DNA from: Pontixanthobacter aestiaquae
GTDB lineage: Bacteria > Pseudomonadota > Alphaproteobacteria > Sphingomonadales > Sphingomonadaceae
Assembly: GCF_009827455.1 (NCBI RefSeq)
Contig: NZ_WTYZ01000001.1
Coordinates: 2,613,001 to 2,677,000 of the forward strand
Direction of reading: 5' to 3'
Length of the DNA: 64,000 nt
This document shows, piece after piece, positions 37,407 through 54,764 of this stretch. The notes below the pieces were generated by a model, which was not told the DNA's origin, did no database searches, and saw only the letters and a program-made list of their open reading frames with translations. Each line of letters starts with the position of its first letter. The stretch's first letter is position 1. A program made the position numbers and the translations under genes.

Positions 37407-37464
37407 AGGCTAGGACCTGTCAGAGCAAAGTGTCAAGTTTTTTGGACATCAAAAAAAGTTGACA
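37407..37464. promoter_or_regulatory. PpsR site and promoter between bchF and ppaA
   Basis: A perfect TGT-N12-ACA palindrome, the PpsR/CrtJ consensus, spans 37431-37448 (TGTCAAGTTTTTTGGACA). On the minus strand its first half reads TTGACA, a consensus -35, with a TAGCCT hexamer 18 bases on at 37407-37412. This predicts a start point about 6-7 bases before the bchF GTG. On the plus strand a second TTGACA lies at 37459-37464, which could serve ppaA. One bound PpsR tetramer could control both directions. Confidence 0.75.
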
Positions 37465-42295: not shown

Positions 42296-43488
42296 GCACA
42301 GAGCCAGACTTCGACGTAGTGGTCGTGGGCGGGGGTCCTTCCGGTGCAACCGCTGCACACGATCTGACAATGCAGGGTCACAAGGTTATGCTACTCGACA
42401 AAGCAGGGCGGATCAAACCATGCGGCGGCGCAGTACCTCCTCGCCTGCTTAAAGACTTCGACATTCCCGAAAGCCTGCTGGTGGCGCATGCCAAGTCGGC
42501 GCGGATTATTGCGCCCTCCAACACCAAGGTGAATATGCCCTGCGGTGATGGTTATGTCGGTATGGTTGATCGTGACCAATTTGACGAATGGCTGCGCACC
42601 CGCGCCAGCGAAGCAGGGGCAACGCGCGTAACCGGCAAATGCGAAGATGTGCTGGACCGGCCCGATGGTTTAGCGACTGTCGCCTATCGAACTGATCGCA
42701 ACGCGAAACTGACAACCGTAACCGCGCGCTGCGTGATTGGCGCTGATGGAGCGCGCTCCCGCGTTGCCCAGCAATGCATTCCCAATGGCGAGAATGTAAA
42801 ATGCGTCTTTGCCTATCACGAGATTGTGAAGGTGCCAGAAGATAATACGGCAGACTATGAGCCCGACCGCTGCGACGTCTATTATCAGGGCCATCTATCG
42901 CCCGACTTCTACGCTTGGGTTTTCCCGCATGGTAAAACTGCCAGCATCGGCCTTGGCAGTGCCAACAAGGGCTTCCCGCTGCGTGAAACCACCAAGTTAA
43001 TGCGAGAGCAAACCGGATTCTCCAAATGGGAAACCATCCGCAAGGAAGGCGCGCCCATTCCGCTGAAACCGCTCAAACGGTGGGACAATGGCCGCAATGT
43101 GCTCGTTGCAGGAGACGCCGCCGGTGTTGTCGCACCATCATCTGGCGAAGGCATTTACTATGCGATGTATGCCGGCCGGATGAGTGCCGATGCGGTCAAC
43201 CAATTCTTAGTCACCGGTAATGCCAAAGCACTGAGAGGCGCGCGCAAGGCCTTTATGAAAGCGCATGGCCGCGTGTTCTGGATTCTCGGCGTGATGCAGT
43301 ATTTCTGGTACAGCAGCGACAAACGCCGCGAACGCTTTGTGAAAATGTGCGATGATCCCGACGTCCAACGCTTGACGTGGGAAGCCTATATGAACAAGGA
43401 ATTGGTCAGGCGGGACCCGATGGCACATATTCGAATTTTCATTAAAGACACCGCGCATCTTCTTGGGCTGAGACCTGCCAAAGCATGA
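42292..43488 (+). CDS. bchP: Geranylgeranyl reductase
   Basis: A 398-residue flavoprotein that reduces the geranylgeranyl tail of bacteriochlorophyll to phytyl. The FAD-binding start is DVVVVGGGPSGATAAHDL, with VIGADGARSRVAQQC in the middle and the conserved VAGDAAGVVAPSSGEGIYYA (about 266-285). The start overlaps the preceding gene and the stop overlaps tspO, each by 4 bases (ATGA). Length is normal. The reductase works at the inner membrane surface after BchG. Confidence 0.96.
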   Translation: MSTEPDFDVVVVGGGPSGATAAHDLTMQGHKVMLLDKAGRIKPCGGAVPPRLLKDFDIPESLLVAHAKSARIIAPSNTKVNMPCGDGYVGMVDRDQFDEWLRTRASEAGATRVTGKCEDVLDRPDGLATVAYRTDRNAKLTTVTARCVIGADGARSRVAQQCIPNGENVKCVFAYHEIVKVPEDNTADYEPDRCDVYYQGHLSPDFYAWVFPHGKTASIGLGSANKGFPLRETTKLMREQTGFSKWETIRKEGAPIPLKPLKRWDNGRNVLVAGDAAGVVAPSSGEGIYYAMYAGRMSADAVNQFLVTGNAKALRGARKAFMKAHGRVFWILGVMQYFWYSSDKRRERFVKMCDDPDVQRLTWEAYMNKELVRRDPMAHIRIFIKDTAHLLGLRPAKA

Positions 43489-43967
43489 GCCGCGCTTCCC
43501 TACTTCCGATTACGATCGCCGCCCTGCTGGTGCTGGTCACTGCCTTTGTTGGTGAAACCATCACCGTTCTGGACGAATGGTATTATAGCCTGACGCAACC
43601 GAGCTGGGCCCCGCCCAGCTATATGTTCGGCATTATCTGGACAGCCGTATTCGCATTAATCGCCATTGCAGGTGTCTTTGCATGGGAGAAGGCACCCAGC
43701 CGGAGGCATACCGAAATCATGCTCGGCATGTTTGCGTTTAACGGCTTTCTGAACTTGCTTTGGAGCTTCCTGTTCTTCCGGATGCAGCGCCCCGATTGGG
43801 CGTTTTACGAGCTGATCGTTCTTTGGCTTTCGATTGCGATCTTGATCCTTTTTTGTGGCCGCTTCTCGAAAGTGGCTTCGCTACTGCTGCTACCGTATCT
43901 GATCTGGGTAACCATCGCGGGCGCACTGAATTATCAAGTCATCCAACTCAACGGCCCTTTCGGCTGA
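43485..43967 (+). CDS. tspO: TspO/MBR tryptophan-rich sensory protein
   Basis: A 160-residue five-helix membrane protein with the conserved TQPSWAPPSYMFGIIWT (about 38-54) and NGFLNLLWSFLFF (about 86-98) that line the porphyrin/ligand pocket. In Rhodobacter sphaeroides, TspO (CrtK) regulates photosynthesis gene expression in response to oxygen, possibly by exporting or degrading tetrapyrroles. Here it is translationally coupled to bchP (ATGA overlap), which supports a tetrapyrrole role. Confidence 0.94.
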   Translation: MSRASLLPITIAALLVLVTAFVGETITVLDEWYYSLTQPSWAPPSYMFGIIWTAVFALIAIAGVFAWEKAPSRRHTEIMLGMFAFNGFLNLLWSFLFFRMQRPDWAFYELIVLWLSIAILILFCGRFSKVASLLLLPYLIWVTIAGALNYQVIQLNGPFG

Positions 43968-43976
43968 GCGCAGGAG

Positions 43977-44243
43977 GTGGAGGAATTTTTCTCCAGCGGA
44001 CGCGCGGTCGATGTGGTGTTGGCCGTTCTGGTAATGGAGGCAATCTGGCTCAAATGGCGCGGCAGTGGTTGGGCGGATATTCTACCCGCGCTCGTTCCTG
44101 CTATTTTGATGATGATTGCGTTAAGGGCGGCCCTGACCGGGTTAGGCTGGATCTACATCTCGGTACCATTGATGGCCGCGTTTCCGGTTCACCTTTATGA
44201 CCTTCATCGGCGTGAAATGCTTCGCTCACGCGATCAGAATTAA
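43977..44243 (+). CDS. Small membrane protein (about 88 aa) after tspO
   Basis: An 88-codon frame 9 bases downstream of tspO. The proposed GTG at 43977 overlaps the AGGAGG sequence that would be its ribosome-binding site, so the true start may be an internal GTG about 12 codons later. The protein has two to three hydrophobic helices (VLAVLVMEAIWLKW, LVPAILMMIALRAAL, YISVPLMAAFPVHLYDLHRR). I do not recognise a family. Co-orientation and spacing suggest it is part of the bchG-tspO operon. Confidence 0.65.
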   Translation: MEEFFSSGRAVDVVLAVLVMEAIWLKWRGSGWADILPALVPAILMMIALRAALTGLGWIYISVPLMAAFPVHLYDLHRREMLRSRDQN

Positions 44244-44351
44244 CCAGCGATCCAGATTACAGGTTCGACGCCCACGCATTGTCACGAAAGTCTTTTGCTC
44301 CGGTTCGAAACCCTTGTACGCTTTGCATGAAAAGAGCCGGGAGATCATTTT

Positions 44352-44672
44352 ATGACCTATAAAGCGACCAAGGTCGTCATCATCACGGAGAAGGTGATCT
44401 TTGACGGCGTTGCCGATATAATCGAAGAAATGGGCGGCACTGGCTACACTGTCGTTGCCGCCGGCGGACGTGGTAGCCGCGGCGTTCGATCAGCAAGCGG
44501 TGCATCGATTGTCGATGCTTTTCGCAACATCAAGGTCGAGGTGATTGTTAGCGAATTGGCAATGGCAGAAAAAATCGCAGATGCCGTAGCAGAGCGGTAC
44601 TTCCAGAATTATTCGGGTATCACCTATCTGGAAGAGGTCGATATTCTGAGGCCGCACAAGTTTCACCACTAA
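44352..44672 (+). CDS. SbtB-like PII-family protein
   Basis: A 106-residue PII-like protein preceded by GGGAG. It matches the cyanobacterial carbon-sensing PII-like protein SbtB: KVVIITEKVIFDGVADIIEE, GYTVVAAGGRGSRGVRS (the nucleotide-binding T-loop region), VEVIVSELAMAEKIADAVAERYF and a C-terminal YSGITYLEEVDIL. SbtB trimers bind adenyl nucleotides including cAMP and regulate SbtA. The redox-active C-terminal Cys-containing extension found in some cyanobacterial SbtB is absent. The sbtA-like gene lies 24 bases downstream on the opposite strand. Confidence 0.88.
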   Translation: MTYKATKVVIITEKVIFDGVADIIEEMGGTGYTVVAAGGRGSRGVRSASGASIVDAFRNIKVEVIVSELAMAEKIADAVAERYFQNYSGITYLEEVDILRPHKFHH

Positions 44673-44696
44673 GGAGAGGCTTACGGCTGTTCAGCG

Positions 44697-45698
44697 TCAG
44701 AATACCATCTGCGCAAGCGCCAAATAGAGAGGTATTCCAATCGCGATAGCCACCGGTGTGCCGATACTTGTCGAGGAACCGATATAAGAGGACGGATTTG
44801 CCGTTGGGATTGCCGCTCTCAATGTCGGCGGTCCGGAAATGTCCGAGCTTGATCCGGCTAGCACCGACAGGAGCACAACACCGCCTGGGCTAAAACCAGT
44901 CGTGACGTGCAGTAGATACCCCAATCCGAATGCGATTAAACCATGCGTCAGCGGTGCGGCAAAAGCGTAAACCGCATACCAATGCGCTACTTTGCGAAGT
45001 TCATTCAACCGCTGATAGGCTTCCATTCCCATGATGAGCATGAGGATAGACAGCAAGCCGCGAAATAGCGGATCGTAAAAGCCCTCGAAAACTTGCTCAG
45101 GCCGAGTTAGGAGCCCCAGCGCCAAACCCAATATCAGCGCCGATAAGGCCGAGCCGCGCAGGCTGTCTTTGATGATCGACCATATTTTCGGACCATTACC
45201 GGATGCACCATCTTGCTTGGCCAGATGGAGGTTGGCGAGGACGATGGCCAGAACCAATGCAGGAATGTCCATGAACGGATAAAGCGCGGGCACCCAGGCC
45301 TCATAGAAAATATCTTCCTCTTCCAGAATGACCATGGCTGCCGCCAGTGTCGACGCGCTAACGGCACCGAACAGACCGGCGGTAGCAATGGCGTCCTCCA
45401 TTTTGACGCCAGGCAAATAAGCCAGCGTGAACCGGCCCAAAAGAACAATTAGACACCCGAGCGCTATTGTCACCAGTGCCGGCAACAGCATTTCTGCAAA
45501 GCTGGCATCGCGAATTTCCAGCCCGCCTTCGATGCCGATCCGCATCAACAGCATGAACACAGCAAATTTGTAGATCGCGTCAGGTATTTCGAGTTGACTG
45601 CGAAACGCGGCCAACGCCATCCCGCCAATCAAGAACGCCAATGCCGGAGACTGGAATTGTGTAACTAAGCGAGACAGAAAATCAGCGACCAAGTCCAT
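44697..45698 (-). CDS. sbtA: SbtA-like sodium-dependent bicarbonate transporter
   Basis: A 333-residue membrane protein with about 10 helices. As I recall the cyanobacterial SbtA sequence it aligns along its whole length: LTQFQSPALAFLIGGMALAA-like start, GLFGAVSASTLAAAMVILEE, YEAWVPALYPFMDIPALV, FEGFYDPLFRGLLSILMLIMGMEA and SSSDISGPPTLRAAIP. The central cytoplasmic loop is shorter, which accounts for the smaller size. SbtA imports HCO3- with Na+. The gene converges with the SbtB-like gene. No RuBisCO gene is in the window, so bicarbonate would feed anaplerotic carboxylation; this is inference. Confidence 0.92.
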   Translation of the reverse strand: MDLVADFLSRLVTQFQSPALAFLIGGMALAAFRSQLEIPDAIYKFAVFMLLMRIGIEGGLEIRDASFAEMLLPALVTIALGCLIVLLGRFTLAYLPGVKMEDAIATAGLFGAVSASTLAAAMVILEEEDIFYEAWVPALYPFMDIPALVLAIVLANLHLAKQDGASGNGPKIWSIIKDSLRGSALSALILGLALGLLTRPEQVFEGFYDPLFRGLLSILMLIMGMEAYQRLNELRKVAHWYAVYAFAAPLTHGLIAFGLGYLLHVTTGFSPGGVVLLSVLAGSSSDISGPPTLRAAIPTANPSSYIGSSTSIGTPVAIAIGIPLYLALAQMVF

Positions 45699-45798
45699 GA
45701 TCTGCCCCTAACAGAAAGTGCTTGGCAAGCCGAGCAAAAACACCGGTACTCGGCTCACCGAATTTAATCTTAAGCTATGCCTGCCACTTAAGGCAGAA

Positions 45799-46074
45799 TC
45801 AGCGCACCTCGGCCGGATCAGTATCGGATGGCTCGACATCTTCCGGTATTACTGGCTCGTTGGGGTTATCGGCCTCACCCGCTGCACGGCCACCCCCTTC
45901 TTGAATCTCGGGGGCACCGGAATTCATTTCGTCTGCTACTGTCCCGTCACCTGCGTCTTCAGCGAGTTGCATATCTTTGTCGGCATCGGCGACGGCTTCG
46001 GGTTCTCCACCACAAGCAGCCAGTGCGAGTGCCAAAGCTGAAATTGCAGAAATTGATCGGTACGGCTTTACCAT
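45799..46074 (-). CDS. Small acidic lipoprotein downstream of pufM
   Basis: A 91-residue protein with a lipoprotein signal (KPYRSISAISALALALAACG, lipobox Cys21). The mature part is about 70 residues, strongly acidic and without tryptophan or other cysteines; nothing indicates a folded domain or cofactor site. GAAAGG lies before the ATG. It is the next gene after pufM on the same strand, separated by 100 bases, where many purple bacteria carry pufC (tetraheme cytochrome). Here no heme motif exists, so it is not PufC. A TATTAT sequence upstream may be its own promoter. The function is unknown. Confidence 0.75.
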   Translation of the reverse strand: MVKPYRSISAISALALALAACGGEPEAVADADKDMQLAEDAGDGTVADEMNSGAPEIQEGGGRAAGEADNPNEPVIPEDVEPSDTDPAEVR

Positions 46075-46174
46075 GACAATTGCCTTTCACATGCTTGATA
46101 ATCGAAGATAATACGCTGCCTAGAATTCCCCAAATCAATATTCCGCGGAAACTGCCGGCGCGCGCAAGGGGCGA

Positions 46175-47104
46175 TCAATATTCAGGGGCATAGTGGTGCT
46201 CAATCGCCCACAGGTACCAATTGTCGACCACTGTCCCAGTCAGCAGGATACCAATACCGCCAGTGAAGGTACACAATACAGCGAACCACCACGCCCAACG
46301 GTGGATCGACTCCATCGTCGCATTGAAGCCCATGGTCCAGCGCCAGAATAATGCCGCACGCTCTGACGCAGTACCGCGATCAGTAATCTGTTCAAGCTCG
46401 CGCTCGCCGCCGTAACGGCCAACTGCAAGGATAGTTGCGCCATGCATGGCGAATAGCAAAGCCGAGCCATACAGGAACACAATCGAAAGAGCATGGAACG
46501 GATTGTAGAACAGGTTTCCGTAAAGCAGCGAGAAATTGTTCGTCCACTCGAGATGCGGGAAGATGCCAAACGGCACCGCCTCGGCCCATGATCCCATGAA
46601 CATCGGGCGAATAAATCCGAGCACCAGATAAAGCCAGATTGCGCTCATAAATGCCCAAGCTACATGCGTGCCCATGCCAAGCGCGCGGGCTCGGCGATAG
46701 GTCCGCACCCACCATAACAATATCGATAGCGTCAGGAAGAAACCCGCAAGTATCCACCAGCCACCATCGTTGAGCGGCACAAATGGACTGAAACCGTATT
46801 CAGGCCCTGGAGGCGCAAGGCCAAGCCAGAAAAATTGACGAACGAATTCGATCGGGTCCCAATTAACCGATGCGAGCATGTTGAGCCCGATGATCTCGAT
46901 CGCAAGGAAGCCGAACAGGAGCGACGCGATGCCGAGCCAGCCGAGATATATCGGCCCGATTTGTGCCTGACCGAATTTGCCCATCCAATAGCTAAACGCA
47001 GTATCCTTGGTCCGGTCACCCTGCTCTTCCGGCGGAAGAGGGATTCCCATTTCAGGCGCGTGAGCAAGCTGGACTTGCGTGAATATGTTTTGATAGCGTG
47101 CCAT
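46175..47104 (-). CDS. pufM: Reaction-centre M subunit
   Basis: A 309-residue subunit with five membrane helices. Characteristic stretches are [40 protein letters not shown] with the ligand to bacteriochlorophyll, [26 protein letters not shown], and [22 protein letters not shown] with histidines for the non-heme iron and quinone pocket. With PufL and PuhA it forms the type II photochemical core. It starts 13 bases after pufL. It ends at EHHYAPEY with no pufC downstream. Confidence 0.98.
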
Positions 47105-47117
47105 TATCTATTCCCCC

Positions 47118-47942
47118 TCACGACCAGATCGGCATGTTGCGCCACCATTCCCACCATTCCGGCCAGCCTTCAGCATAAAGCGGCCCGGCGATGAAGATGC
47201 ACACTGCACTCCAGAAACCGGCATTCAATGCGAGGAACAGCCCCAAACGGTGGATGCCGATAGTGCCCACGGAATAACCGATGAAATCACGGAAAAACGT
47301 GTCTTCATATTCGGGCGTTTTGACTTCCTGCCCCTTTTTCGGGTTCACCGCTGACAGGATTAATGCCCCGTGCAGAGCCAGCGCAAATGTCGTCACGAAG
47401 AAGAACGACACTGCGATCATATGAGCGGGGTTGTAATGGAAGTTTACATATTGATAGCCGGTGTTCGACACCCAATCGAGGTGACTGAATATCCCGTAAG
47501 GGAAGCCGTGTCCCCAAGCGCCCATAAAGAACGGCCGGATGACGACCAAGGTTACATAGGCGAAAATTGCGACGCCAAAAGCTATCGGGACATGATAGCC
47601 CATCCCCAGCTTGCGGCAGATTTCCACCTCTCGCAGCGCCCATGAACTGAAGGCCACGATCGCGCAGATGGTAATAATCTGCCAGAAACCACCTTCGTTG
47701 AGCGGGGCGAACCCCAGCCCATAGGCAATGTCCGGCGGATTGATCGAAATGAGCCAGGGATTCCACGTTGGCCCCTGCGAGGCCGCGTAGAATATCAGCG
47801 CCGTCCCGAGTATTGCGGATATTGCCGAAACAACCCCGAAAAACCCGACATAGAAAGGCCCGATCCAAAAATCGAACAGATCGCCTCCAATCAGGGTACC
47901 GCCCCTGACCCGATATTTTCGCTCGAAACTTAACAGCGACAT
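47118..47942 (-). CDS. pufL: Reaction-centre L subunit
   Basis: A 274-residue subunit that binds the special pair and QB with PufM. The N-terminus [26 protein letters not shown] is typical. [22 protein letters not shown] carries histidine ligands for bacteriochlorophyll, and [20 protein letters not shown] holds iron and QB residues. The gene follows pufA after 123 bases that contain hairpins. Length and motif order are normal. Confidence 0.98.
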
Positions 47943-53583: not shown

Positions 53584-53627
53584 TGTTAAACTACCGGAAC
53601 ATTATCTATTGTCAACTAAACTGGACA
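53584..53627 (-). promoter_or_regulatory. Tandem PpsR sites upstream of bchC
   Basis: Two perfect TGT-N12-ACA palindromes lie in the 99-base gap between crtF and bchC: TGTTAAACTACCGGAACA at 53584-53601 and TGTCAACTAAACTGGACA at 53610-53627. They are 26 bases apart start to start. On the minus strand the second contains TTGACA, a consensus -35, and the first would cover the -10 region. The arrangement predicts tight repression of bchCXYZ-puf by cooperative PpsR binding. Confidence 0.8.
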
Positions 53628-53636
53628 CCTTGGCTG

Positions 53637-54764
53637 TCACTTGTGCGCGACAAGCGCCTGAGCGATGATCGGAAGAGGCGTGTTTATCGCTTTAACCCCT
53701 GAAAAGCCTGCATTCTTCAACATTTTCCGGTTCTCTGTGGATGAGCGCGGCCGACCAGAGCCCATCGCCCACAAATACATCCCGAAATAGGCATCACCCA
53801 TGCCTTCAGCGAGTCGAGTCTCCGCCATCGGCTCGGCAATCAGCAATCGTCCTCCCACCGCGAGCGACTCGTAAACCGCCTTGAGCAGCTGCGCGGCAAC
53901 ATCATCGTTATGGTCATGCAAAATGCGGATAAGGGTGACGAGATCATAGCCCAGCGGGATCGGATCAGCGCGGAAGCTCCCGCTATGAATGGTCACACGC
54001 TTCTCCAGCGGCGTATTAGCAAACCGCGCCTCCGCCAAATGGGCCACATCGGCTAGATCAAAGATGCCGAGCTCGATTCTTGGAGCGGTGCCGGCAACTG
54101 CCTCGACAAAAGCCCCTGAGCCGCCGCCGATATCTAGCATCTTTCTATGCTGCCTGAAGGAATAACGCCCAATGATCTGCTCCCATACCATGGGCTGCGT
54201 TGCTTGCATTAGTTCGGAATAGGGAGTCGCGCCGCCTTCGCGATCCTGCGCATAGGTCCAAAACTGCGACAGTTCGCTATCCACCCCGCCTTGCCGCGAG
54301 AGCAAGGCCATCGGATCGGCCATATCGCGATAAAGCAATGCGTGATGCCGGACCATCGCCATCGCTCCCTCGTTCACCGAAAGGGCCGCGCCTACCTCTC
54401 CCAAAAGCCACAAATCGTATTGCGGCGACTCGCACAGTTTAAGCGCGGCACCAGCCTTCAGAATGCGGTCCGTAGCTTCTCTCTGAAAGCCGAGAAATTC
54501 AGCAACATCATCAAACTGCCTCGGCCCTTCCCTCAGGAAATCGATCAGTCCCGATTGCACGAAAACATAGGTTATCTGTGTATAGACAAAGCCCGCAATC
54601 AGATGGAATTGCCCAGCCGCTTTACGCCGCGCAATGCGCCGGAAAATCAGCGTTTTTGCGGCCCAGTTCTGGAACCTCTGACTGCCCAGAACCCTGTTGC
54701 GACACAGCGCCCATCGGGTCCGCCAATTCGGTGTGGTTAGTTCAGAGTCTTTGATGTTAGACAT
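53637..54764 (-). CDS. crtF: Hydroxyneurosporene O-methyltransferase
   Basis: A 375-residue SAM-dependent methyltransferase that methylates the tertiary hydroxyl of acyclic carotenoids such as hydroxyneurosporene. The SAM motif is MLDIGGGSGAFVEAVAG (about 205-221), followed by LGIFDLADVAHLA. An N-terminal dimerisation region is seen before it. The ATG at 54764 lies inside a 14-base palindrome. crtF is transcribed on the same strand as bchC, but the PpsR sites between them suggest bchC also has its own promoter. Confidence 0.93.
   Translation of the reverse strand: MSNIKDSELTTPNWRTRWALCRNRVLGSQRFQNWAAKTLIFRRIARRKAAGQFHLIAGFVYTQITYVFVQSGLIDFLREGPRQFDDVAEFLGFQREATDRILKAGAALKLCESPQYDLWLLGEVGAALSVNEGAMAMVRHHALLYRDMADPMALLSRQGGVDSELSQFWTYAQDREGGATPYSELMQATQPMVWEQIIGRYSFRQHRKMLDIGGGSGAFVEAVAGTAPRIELGIFDLADVAHLAEARFANTPLEKRVTIHSGSFRADPIPLGYDLVTLIRILHDHNDDVAAQLLKAVYESLAVGGRLLIAEPMAETRLAEGMGDAYFGMYLWAMGSGRPRSSTENRKMLKNAGFSGVKAINTPLPIIAQALVAHK

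What the first reader, a model, noticed from the sequence alone, without database searches (positions are those of the whole stretch)
44352..45698. SbtA/SbtB-type bicarbonate transporter and PII-like regulator inside a photosynthesis cluster
Seen in sequence: the two genes converge between the bchG-tspO operon and the puf operon, and both match the cyanobacterial SbtA and SbtB proteins along their length (GLFGAVSAST, YDPLFRGLLSILMLIMGMEA, SSSDISGPPTLRA; GYTVVAAGGRGSR, MAEKIADAVAERYF). Established: SbtA imports HCO3- with Na+, and SbtB binds adenyl nucleotides to regulate it. Inference: light-driven ion gradients could power bicarbonate uptake for anaplerotic fixation in a heterotrophic phototroph that lacks RuBisCO here. 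The convergent order differs from the cyanobacterial sbtA-sbtB order, and the SbtB C-terminal Cys extension is missing. Such genes within a PGC suggest horizontal acquisition and light-linked carbon uptake.
Basis: partly seen in the sequence, partly recalled or inferred. Interest (0 to 1): 0.75.

Follow-up and report, generated by a model that had tools for sequence, protein, structure and literature searches.

The report
Bicarbonate importer inside photosynthesis gene cluster
A light-using bacterium that lacks the usual CO2-fixing enzyme carries, among its photosynthesis genes, a gene pair closely resembling the cyanobacterial bicarbonate importer SbtA and its regulator SbtB, and in the samples examined relatives that have such a pair were light-users more often than expected.

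Summary
sbtB (+, 44352-44672) and sbtA (-, 44697-45698) converge with 24 bp between them, between bchG-...-tspO-hyp88 and pufLM. Both are full-length; SbtA keeps all nine Na+/HCO3- residues reported for Slr1512. The genome has no RuBisCO match, and a second, divergent Sbt_1 + PII-like + carbonic anhydrase operon elsewhere.

Corrections: convergent order and the missing Cys loop are ordinary (24 of 80 fetched relatives converge; 0 of 77 non-cyanobacterial SbtBs read have the loop). Nearest named relatives are Alphaproteobacteria (about 81%), not cyanobacteria (62-66%). The pair is not a conserved cluster gene: 0 of 148 other genomes in a family sample have this SbtA type. One uncultured proteobacterial MAG has sbtAB on the same contig as pufM, 17 kb away.

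New here: in an Alphaproteobacteria sample this SbtA is in 5 of 24 other reaction-centre genomes against 2 of 360 without. Of 32 phototrophic carriers tested, 21 have no RuBisCO match.

Most likely a Na+/HCO3- symporter gated by adenylate charge, feeding non-Calvin carboxylations. Transport and light coupling are inferred. The anaplerotic idea is in print for another aerobic phototroph (PMC10008586).

The parts
44352..44672 (+). sbtB: PII-like SbtB, 106 aa, T-loop GRGSRGVR, no cysteine (no R-loop)
44697..45698 (-). sbtA: SbtA-type Na+/HCO3- symporter, 333 aa; Na+ site F110 G111 A112 A281 S283 and HCO3- site S114 Y140 S285 S288 in its own numbering
   Evidence: residues from PMC8352866 (whole text read)
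44673..44696 (.). 24-bp gap between the two convergent stop codons
45799..46074 (-). 91-aa lipoprotein-like ORF between pufM and sbtA; tblastn found no relative in the fetched loci other than the window's own
46175..47942 (-). pufM and pufL (reaction centre), same strand as sbtA
43485..43967 (+). tspO in the bchG-G115-bchP-tspO-hyp88 run, same strand as sbtB
43977..44243 (+). hyp88: 88-aa ORF after tspO (membrane-protein-like by eye), at the same place in 9 other PGCs fetched

Best explanation
A genuine SbtA/SbtB bicarbonate-import module that this bacterium (a RuBisCO-less anoxygenic phototroph with an erythrobacter-type photosynthesis cluster) gained, most likely from another proteobacterium, and that lies at the convergent junction between the bchG-...-tspO-hyp88 run and the puf operon. 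SbtA imports HCO3- with Na+. SbtB, lacking the redox R-loop, senses adenylate charge: with AMP or ADP (dark, starved) its T-loop plugs SbtA, with ATP it lets go. The HCO3- feeds non-Calvin carboxylations (PEP carboxylase, pyruvate carboxylase, biosynthesis). Photophosphorylation would raise ATP and the ion gradient, so import would follow light without a dedicated light sensor. Shown by calls: protein identity, conservation of the substrate sites, no RuBisCO match, position, lineage-specific presence, co-occurrence with reaction centres. Inferred: transport, gating, carbon sink, light coupling, donor.
For: Full-length match to Slr1512 and to SbtB; all nine reported Na+/HCO3- positions of Slr1512 conserved, whereas the genome's other Sbt_1 differs at five of nine (the Na+ contacts are main-chain, so identity there counts for less). 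No PF00016 match in the genome. This SbtA type in 0 of 148 other genomes of the family sample. Class sample of 385: in 6 of 25 reaction-centre genomes and 2 of 360 others; without the own genome 5 of 24 against 2 of 360, Fisher p=1.2e-5; 5 of the 6 phototrophic carriers have no RuBisCO match. In one family of 17 genomes 4 of 4 reaction-centre genomes and 1 of 13 others carry it (p=0.002; three of the carriers are also in the class sample). Of 51 carriers tested 32 have reaction-centre genes, and of these 21 have no RuBisCO match, 3 a weak one, 8 a strong one. The two other carriers found in the own family or named Erythrobacter (G392, MO_005.B18) are phototrophs. In print: SbtB suppresses SbtA in E. 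coli (PMC4275256, passages); R-loop-less SbtB follows adenylate charge (PMC10991534, passages).
Against: No transport, expression or light data. No PpsR-type site at the pair; co-transcription with puf or the bchG run is only positional, and a terminator-like stem lies before sbtA (number of such stems not above chance). In the own family sample 25 of 26 phototrophs lack this SbtA type, and 19 of 51 carriers have no reaction-centre match. Many carriers are MAGs with similar bin names (mat studies, from recall), so shared habitat could make the association; no phylogenetic correction was made beyond one family. The carboxylases of this genome were not searched. R. denitrificans fixes CO2 by anaplerosis without light enhancement (PMC2749216, passages).
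Confidence: 0.6

Rival explanations
1. The pair is an ordinary bicarbonate-supply module for CO2-poor or alkaline habitats; its place in the PGC is an accident of insertion at a tolerant convergent junction, and its frequency in phototrophs reflects shared habitat, not light-linked use.
For: The hyp88/pufM junction varies from 100 to 3442 bp in 10 PGCs: pufC in two, an SDR-like gene in one, regulator-like and other genes in one (names by eye and tblastn). 19 of 51 carriers have no reaction-centre match, among them four Haliea, two Alteromonadaceae and one Bacillaceae. Presence of SbtA-family transporters follows pH optimum in autotrophs (PMC10880623, passages).
Against: Co-occurrence holds in an evenly drawn class sample and within one family. 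The other Sbt_1 type shows no significant link in the own family (8 of 28 carriers against 18 of 121 non-carriers phototrophic, p=0.10), though that comparison is of another taxonomic depth.
Confidence: 0.3
2. The substrate is another small carboxylate such as formate, or transport is mainly efflux.
For: A Shewanella Sbt-like protein is linked to formate tolerance and possible efflux (PMC12093963, passages).
Against: The substrate of that protein is unproven; the window protein keeps the full HCO3- site of Slr1512 and an adjacent SbtB.
Confidence: 0.05
3. The pair is decaying or non-functional.
For: Only occurrence at this site among the PGCs fetched; no promoter recognised at the pair.
Against: Both frames are intact; SbtA is 74-90% identical to 13 aligned relatives over its full length; composition is close to the neighbours.
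Confidence: 0.05

Closest known systems
SbtA/SbtB of Synechocystis PCC 6803 (Slr1512/Slr1513) and Cyanobium PCC 7001
   Same: Full-length homology, Na+ and HCO3- residues, PII-like partner next door, T-loop; like PCC 7001 (PMC10991534, passages) no R-loop
   Different: Convergent instead of same-strand genes; a roughly 40-residue cytoplasmic loop of Slr1512 is missing; host has no RuBisCO match
Sbt of 'Candidatus Phycosocius' (PMC10008586, one passage seen)
   Same: Aerobic anoxygenic phototroph without RuBisCO; authors propose uptake for anaplerotic CO2 assimilation
   Different: The passage seen names no place in the PGC; its sequence was not compared here
Second Sbt_1 operon of the same genome (L001): Sbt_1 - PII-like - carbonic anhydrase (Pro_CA)
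   Same: Same Pfam families Sbt_1 and P-II
   Different: About 30% identity, five of nine site residues differ; PII-like partner closest to 5d4n (CPII by recall); CA attached
sbtAB of the uncultured proteobacterial MAG in L071 (G901)
   Same: On the same contig as puf, puh, bchG, bchP, tspO
   Different: Same-strand pair, 17 kb from pufM, beside a methyltransferase and a PUCC-family gene; another SbtA subclade

Membership tests
SbtA (Na+/HCO3- symporter, Sbt_1) | Sbt_1 domain over the full length | tested here: met
   E=1.4e-91, profile 1-308 of 308
SbtA (Na+/HCO3- symporter, Sbt_1) | Na+ and HCO3- residues of Slr1512 | tested here: met
   9 of 9 (positions from PMC8352866)
SbtA (Na+/HCO3- symporter, Sbt_1) | Na+-dependent HCO3- uptake | not testable with these tools
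   needs an uptake assay
SbtB (PII-like) | P-II family, closest to SbtB rather than GlnB/GlnK | tested here: met
   SbtB chains E 4e-26 to 6e-24; TTHA0516 1e-11; chains called P-II or GlnB 3e-4 or worse
SbtB (PII-like) | T-loop motif and gene next to sbtA | tested here: met
   GRGSRGVR, 24 bp from sbtA; the strict motif is in 28 of 79 relatives read
SbtB (PII-like) | C-terminal redox R-loop (Cys pair) | tested here: not met
   absent; not a required feature: in roughly half of 460 cyanobacterial SbtBs (PMC10991534, passage)
SbtB (PII-like) | adenyl-nucleotide binding and plugging of SbtA | not testable with these tools
   needs binding and uptake assays
RuBisCO-based CO2-concentrating mechanism | RuBisCO in the genome | tested here: not met
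   no PF00016 match in G000
PpsR-regulated PGC gene | TGTN12ACA site at the promoter | tested here: not met
   12 exact sites in the window (chance mean 8.4), none between 40023 and 53584, so none at the pair; motif from recall

The most novel reading that the evidence does not exclude
Cyanobacterial-type SbtA/SbtB is a recurrently acquired accessory of RuBisCO-less anoxygenic photosynthesis: adenylate charge set by light gates bicarbonate import for anaplerotic carboxylation, and in two separate lineages the pair has been drawn into or next to the photosynthesis gene cluster.
Probability: 0.3. Interest if true: 0.75.

Novelty: new member of a known kind. Interest (0 to 1): 0.5.

Why it matters
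Whether and how aerobic anoxygenic phototrophs use light for CO2 incorporation without a Calvin cycle is an old question. A known, energy-gated bicarbonate importer placed inside the photosynthesis cluster, and over-represented in reaction-centre genomes many of which have no RuBisCO match, gives a single-gene handle on it: delete sbtA and measure light and dark H14CO3- incorporation.

Tried and rejected
Direct gain from cyanobacteria: rejected as the proximate step. In the tree the window protein groups with metagenomic proteins P0002-P0005 and P0007 (83-90%) among Alphaproteobacteria, while the two cyanobacterial plasmid copies (62-66%) branch with Chromatiaceae (quick tree, only two cyanobacterial rows).

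A conserved PGC gene: rejected (0 of 148 other genomes of the family sample have this SbtA type; none in the stretches of up to 20 kb around puf of 25 other genomes). Linkage in the closest SbtA relatives was sought by comparing contig lengths of the 120 listed SbtA and 120 listed TspO proteins: one length, 5616, is in both lists but from different sources (lgn, jgi); P0003 (6787) and P0007 (79694) have no TspO partner, and the best TspO (94%, contig 2449088) has no listed SbtA. This is weak: the lists are capped and the window's own TspO is not in its list.

Replacement of pufC: considered, since pufC stands at this spot in two related PGCs; not concluded, because five related PGCs have only 100-263 bp there, and loss of pufC in Sphingomonadales is in print (PMC3176799, passage).

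Regulation: PpsR sites, promoters, terminators and repeats gave nothing above chance at the pair. Structure prediction was not run; the sequence match to solved SbtA and SbtB made it unnecessary. The reaction-centre state changes 8 times on the SbtA tree among 55 labelled rows (34 positive); no shuffles were run, so nothing is concluded.

Full report
1. The observation. sbtB (44352-44672, +, 106 aa) and sbtA (44697-45698, -, 333 aa) are intact and converge with 24 bp between the stop codons. SbtA fills the Sbt_1 model (E=1.4e-91) and matches Slr1512 from end to end apart from a roughly 40-residue cytoplasmic loop. SbtB is closer to solved SbtB proteins (E 4e-26 to 6e-24) than to chains called P-II or GlnB (3e-4 or worse). 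The Na+ residues (Slr1512 F110, G111, A112, A320, S322; main-chain contacts) and HCO3- residues (S114, Y140, S324, S327; docked and tested by mutation) of PMC8352866 (whole text read) are all present; two cyanobacterial plasmid SbtAs, 65% identical in the alignment, have the same set.

2. The genome. G000 is 2.87 Mb in 2 contigs, 99.99% complete. It has a second Sbt_1 gene about 650 kb away, followed by a 102-aa PII-like gene and a Pro_CA carbonic anhydrase. That Sbt_1 is 31% identical and differs at five of the nine positions; its PII-like partner is nearest to 5d4n. No RuBisCO large-chain match exists.

3. The place. In 10 PGCs (the window and nine others) the run bchG-G115-bchP-tspO-hyp88 faces pufM, with 100 to 3442 bp between hyp88 and pufM (distances between alignment ends). 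Two hold pufC there (G103, G392), one an SDR-like gene (G054), one regulator-like and other genes (G108), and five have 100-263 bp (names by eye). Only the window has sbtBA. In the family sample of 149 genomes 26 have reaction-centre genes over the cut-off and 28 a full Sbt_1 gene, but apart from the PGC copy all of these are of the other type (26-33% identity to the window). In the 25 other phototrophs no sbtA of this type lies in the stretches of up to 20 kb fetched around puf. pufM is in 1 of 8 genomes of the genus, and none of five congeners searched has this SbtA type. Composition is near that of the neighbours: sbtA 53.9% GC, sbtB 51.4% (the lowest of the genes listed), PGC genes 53-62%. 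So the pair looks like a lineage-specific gain, old enough to resemble its surroundings. By its place sbtA follows pufLM and the lipoprotein-like ORF on the same strand, and sbtB follows the bchG run by 108 bp; read-through is possible but unproven. No TGTN12ACA site lies at the pair.

4. Relatives. A scan of genome contigs found 198 encoded relatives, of which the best 80 were kept. Of these 80, 51 have sbtB after sbtA on the same strand, 24 are convergent within 1 kb, one is convergent and one divergent at more than 1 kb, and 3 have no sbtB in the locus (counted by hand from the rows, whose own totals are for 90 loci with repeats). Of 79 SbtBs read (77 non-cyanobacterial, at least one cut by a contig end), only one, cyanobacterial, has a C-terminal Cys pair. 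In the tree (105 rows, quick method) the window protein sits with P0002-P0005 and P0007 among Alphaproteobacteria; the two other carriers of or near the family (L094, L115) stand elsewhere, with long branches and modest support, so at least two gains are likely. In 396 genomes of the order only G000 and G392 have the type (next best 33% identity).

5. Link with phototrophy. In 385 Alphaproteobacteria, 8 have this SbtA (E up to 1e-60) and 25 a reaction centre; 6 have both. Leaving out the own genome: 5 of 24 against 2 of 360, Fisher p=1.2e-5. Three of the five belong to one family; in that family (17 genomes held) 4 of 4 phototrophs and 1 of 13 others carry SbtA. Five of the six phototrophic carriers have no RuBisCO match; G496 has one. 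Of 51 carriers (G392 and 50 of the 80 loci; four overlap the class sample), 32 have reaction-centre genes; of the 32, 8 have a strong RuBisCO match (E under 1e-60), 3 a weak one, 21 none. Of the 19 without, 2 have RuBisCO. Contrast: for the divergent Sbt_1 type in the own family 8 of 28 carriers are phototrophs and 18 of 121 non-carriers, p=0.10. Against the link: within the own family sample 25 of 26 phototrophs lack this SbtA. Caveats: no phylogenetic correction beyond the one family, incomplete MAGs, probably shared mat habitats, and carriers chosen by likeness to the window.

6. Linkage elsewhere. For all 32 phototrophic carriers, stretches around the reaction-centre genes (5-20 kb, several cut by contig ends) show sbtA in one, G901 (L071): sbtA at 5.0-6.0 kb and pufM at 22.8-23.7 kb of a 42.6-kb contig, with tspO, bchP, bchG, lhaA and puh genes between, and a PUCC gene and a methyltransferase next to sbtA. 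The 10-kb flanks of sbtA in the 80 loci agree: PGC genes only in L071. Its SbtA belongs to another subclade, so this is a separate event.

7. Mechanism. From print: SbtB suppressed SbtA uptake in E. coli in four of five pairs (PMC4275256, passages); AMP/ADP favour and ATP hinders binding, and SbtBs without R-loop follow adenylate charge (PMC10991534, passages). Roseobacter denitrificans takes 10-15% of protein carbon from CO2 by anaplerosis without a Calvin cycle, not enhanced by light, whereas Acidiphilium rubrum showed 3-5-fold more in light (PMC2749216, passages). The inference is HCO3- import when photophosphorylation keeps ATP high. PMC10008586 (one passage) proposes Sbt for anaplerotic uptake in another aerobic phototroph, so the idea is not new.

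8. Novelty. Searches for SbtA or bicarbonate transporter with PGC, anoxygenic or bacteriochlorophyll terms listed no paper that, from titles and abstract starts, describes sbtAB in a PGC; one search listed 20 of 69, the others all they found (14, 2, 4). The main texts of PMC3176799 and PMC4919336, two papers on such PGCs, do not contain the word bicarbonate. The protein pair is a new member of a known kind; the position and the co-occurrence are the parts I did not find in print.

Noticed in passing
L001 1468-3397 (G000:C1 about 2005366-2007295): Second operon of the same genome: divergent Sbt_1, PII-like 102 aa, Pro_CA carbonic anhydrase, beside a lipoyl-synthase-like gene (by eye); this Sbt_1 type is in 28 of 149 genomes of the family sample.
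   Followed up: partly
43977-44243: The 88-aa ORF after tspO is kept in 9 other PGCs fetched at the same place and has no Pfam or NCBIfam match: an unnamed PGC gene.
   Followed up: partly
44244-46174 and the same junction in L151, L157, L167, L183: The hyp88/pufM convergent junction is a variable spot: pufC, an SDR-like gene, regulator-like genes or next to nothing in relatives.
   Followed up: partly
45799-46074: 91-aa acidic lipoprotein-like ORF with no relative found in the fetched loci.
   Followed up: no
53584-53652: Three exact TGTN12ACA sites in 69 bp between bchC and the end of crtF; single sites also at 37431 (between bchF and ppaA) and 40006 (before bchG). The total in the window is not above chance.
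   Followed up: no
L161/L171 (G006) and L164/L172 (G100): Two genomes carry two different puf operons each; the second has puhABC close by.
   Followed up: no
L048: A MAG titled Anaerolineae is 94% identical over 3.1 kb to an alphaproteobacterial locus (L059/L176): probably a wrong label.
   Followed up: no
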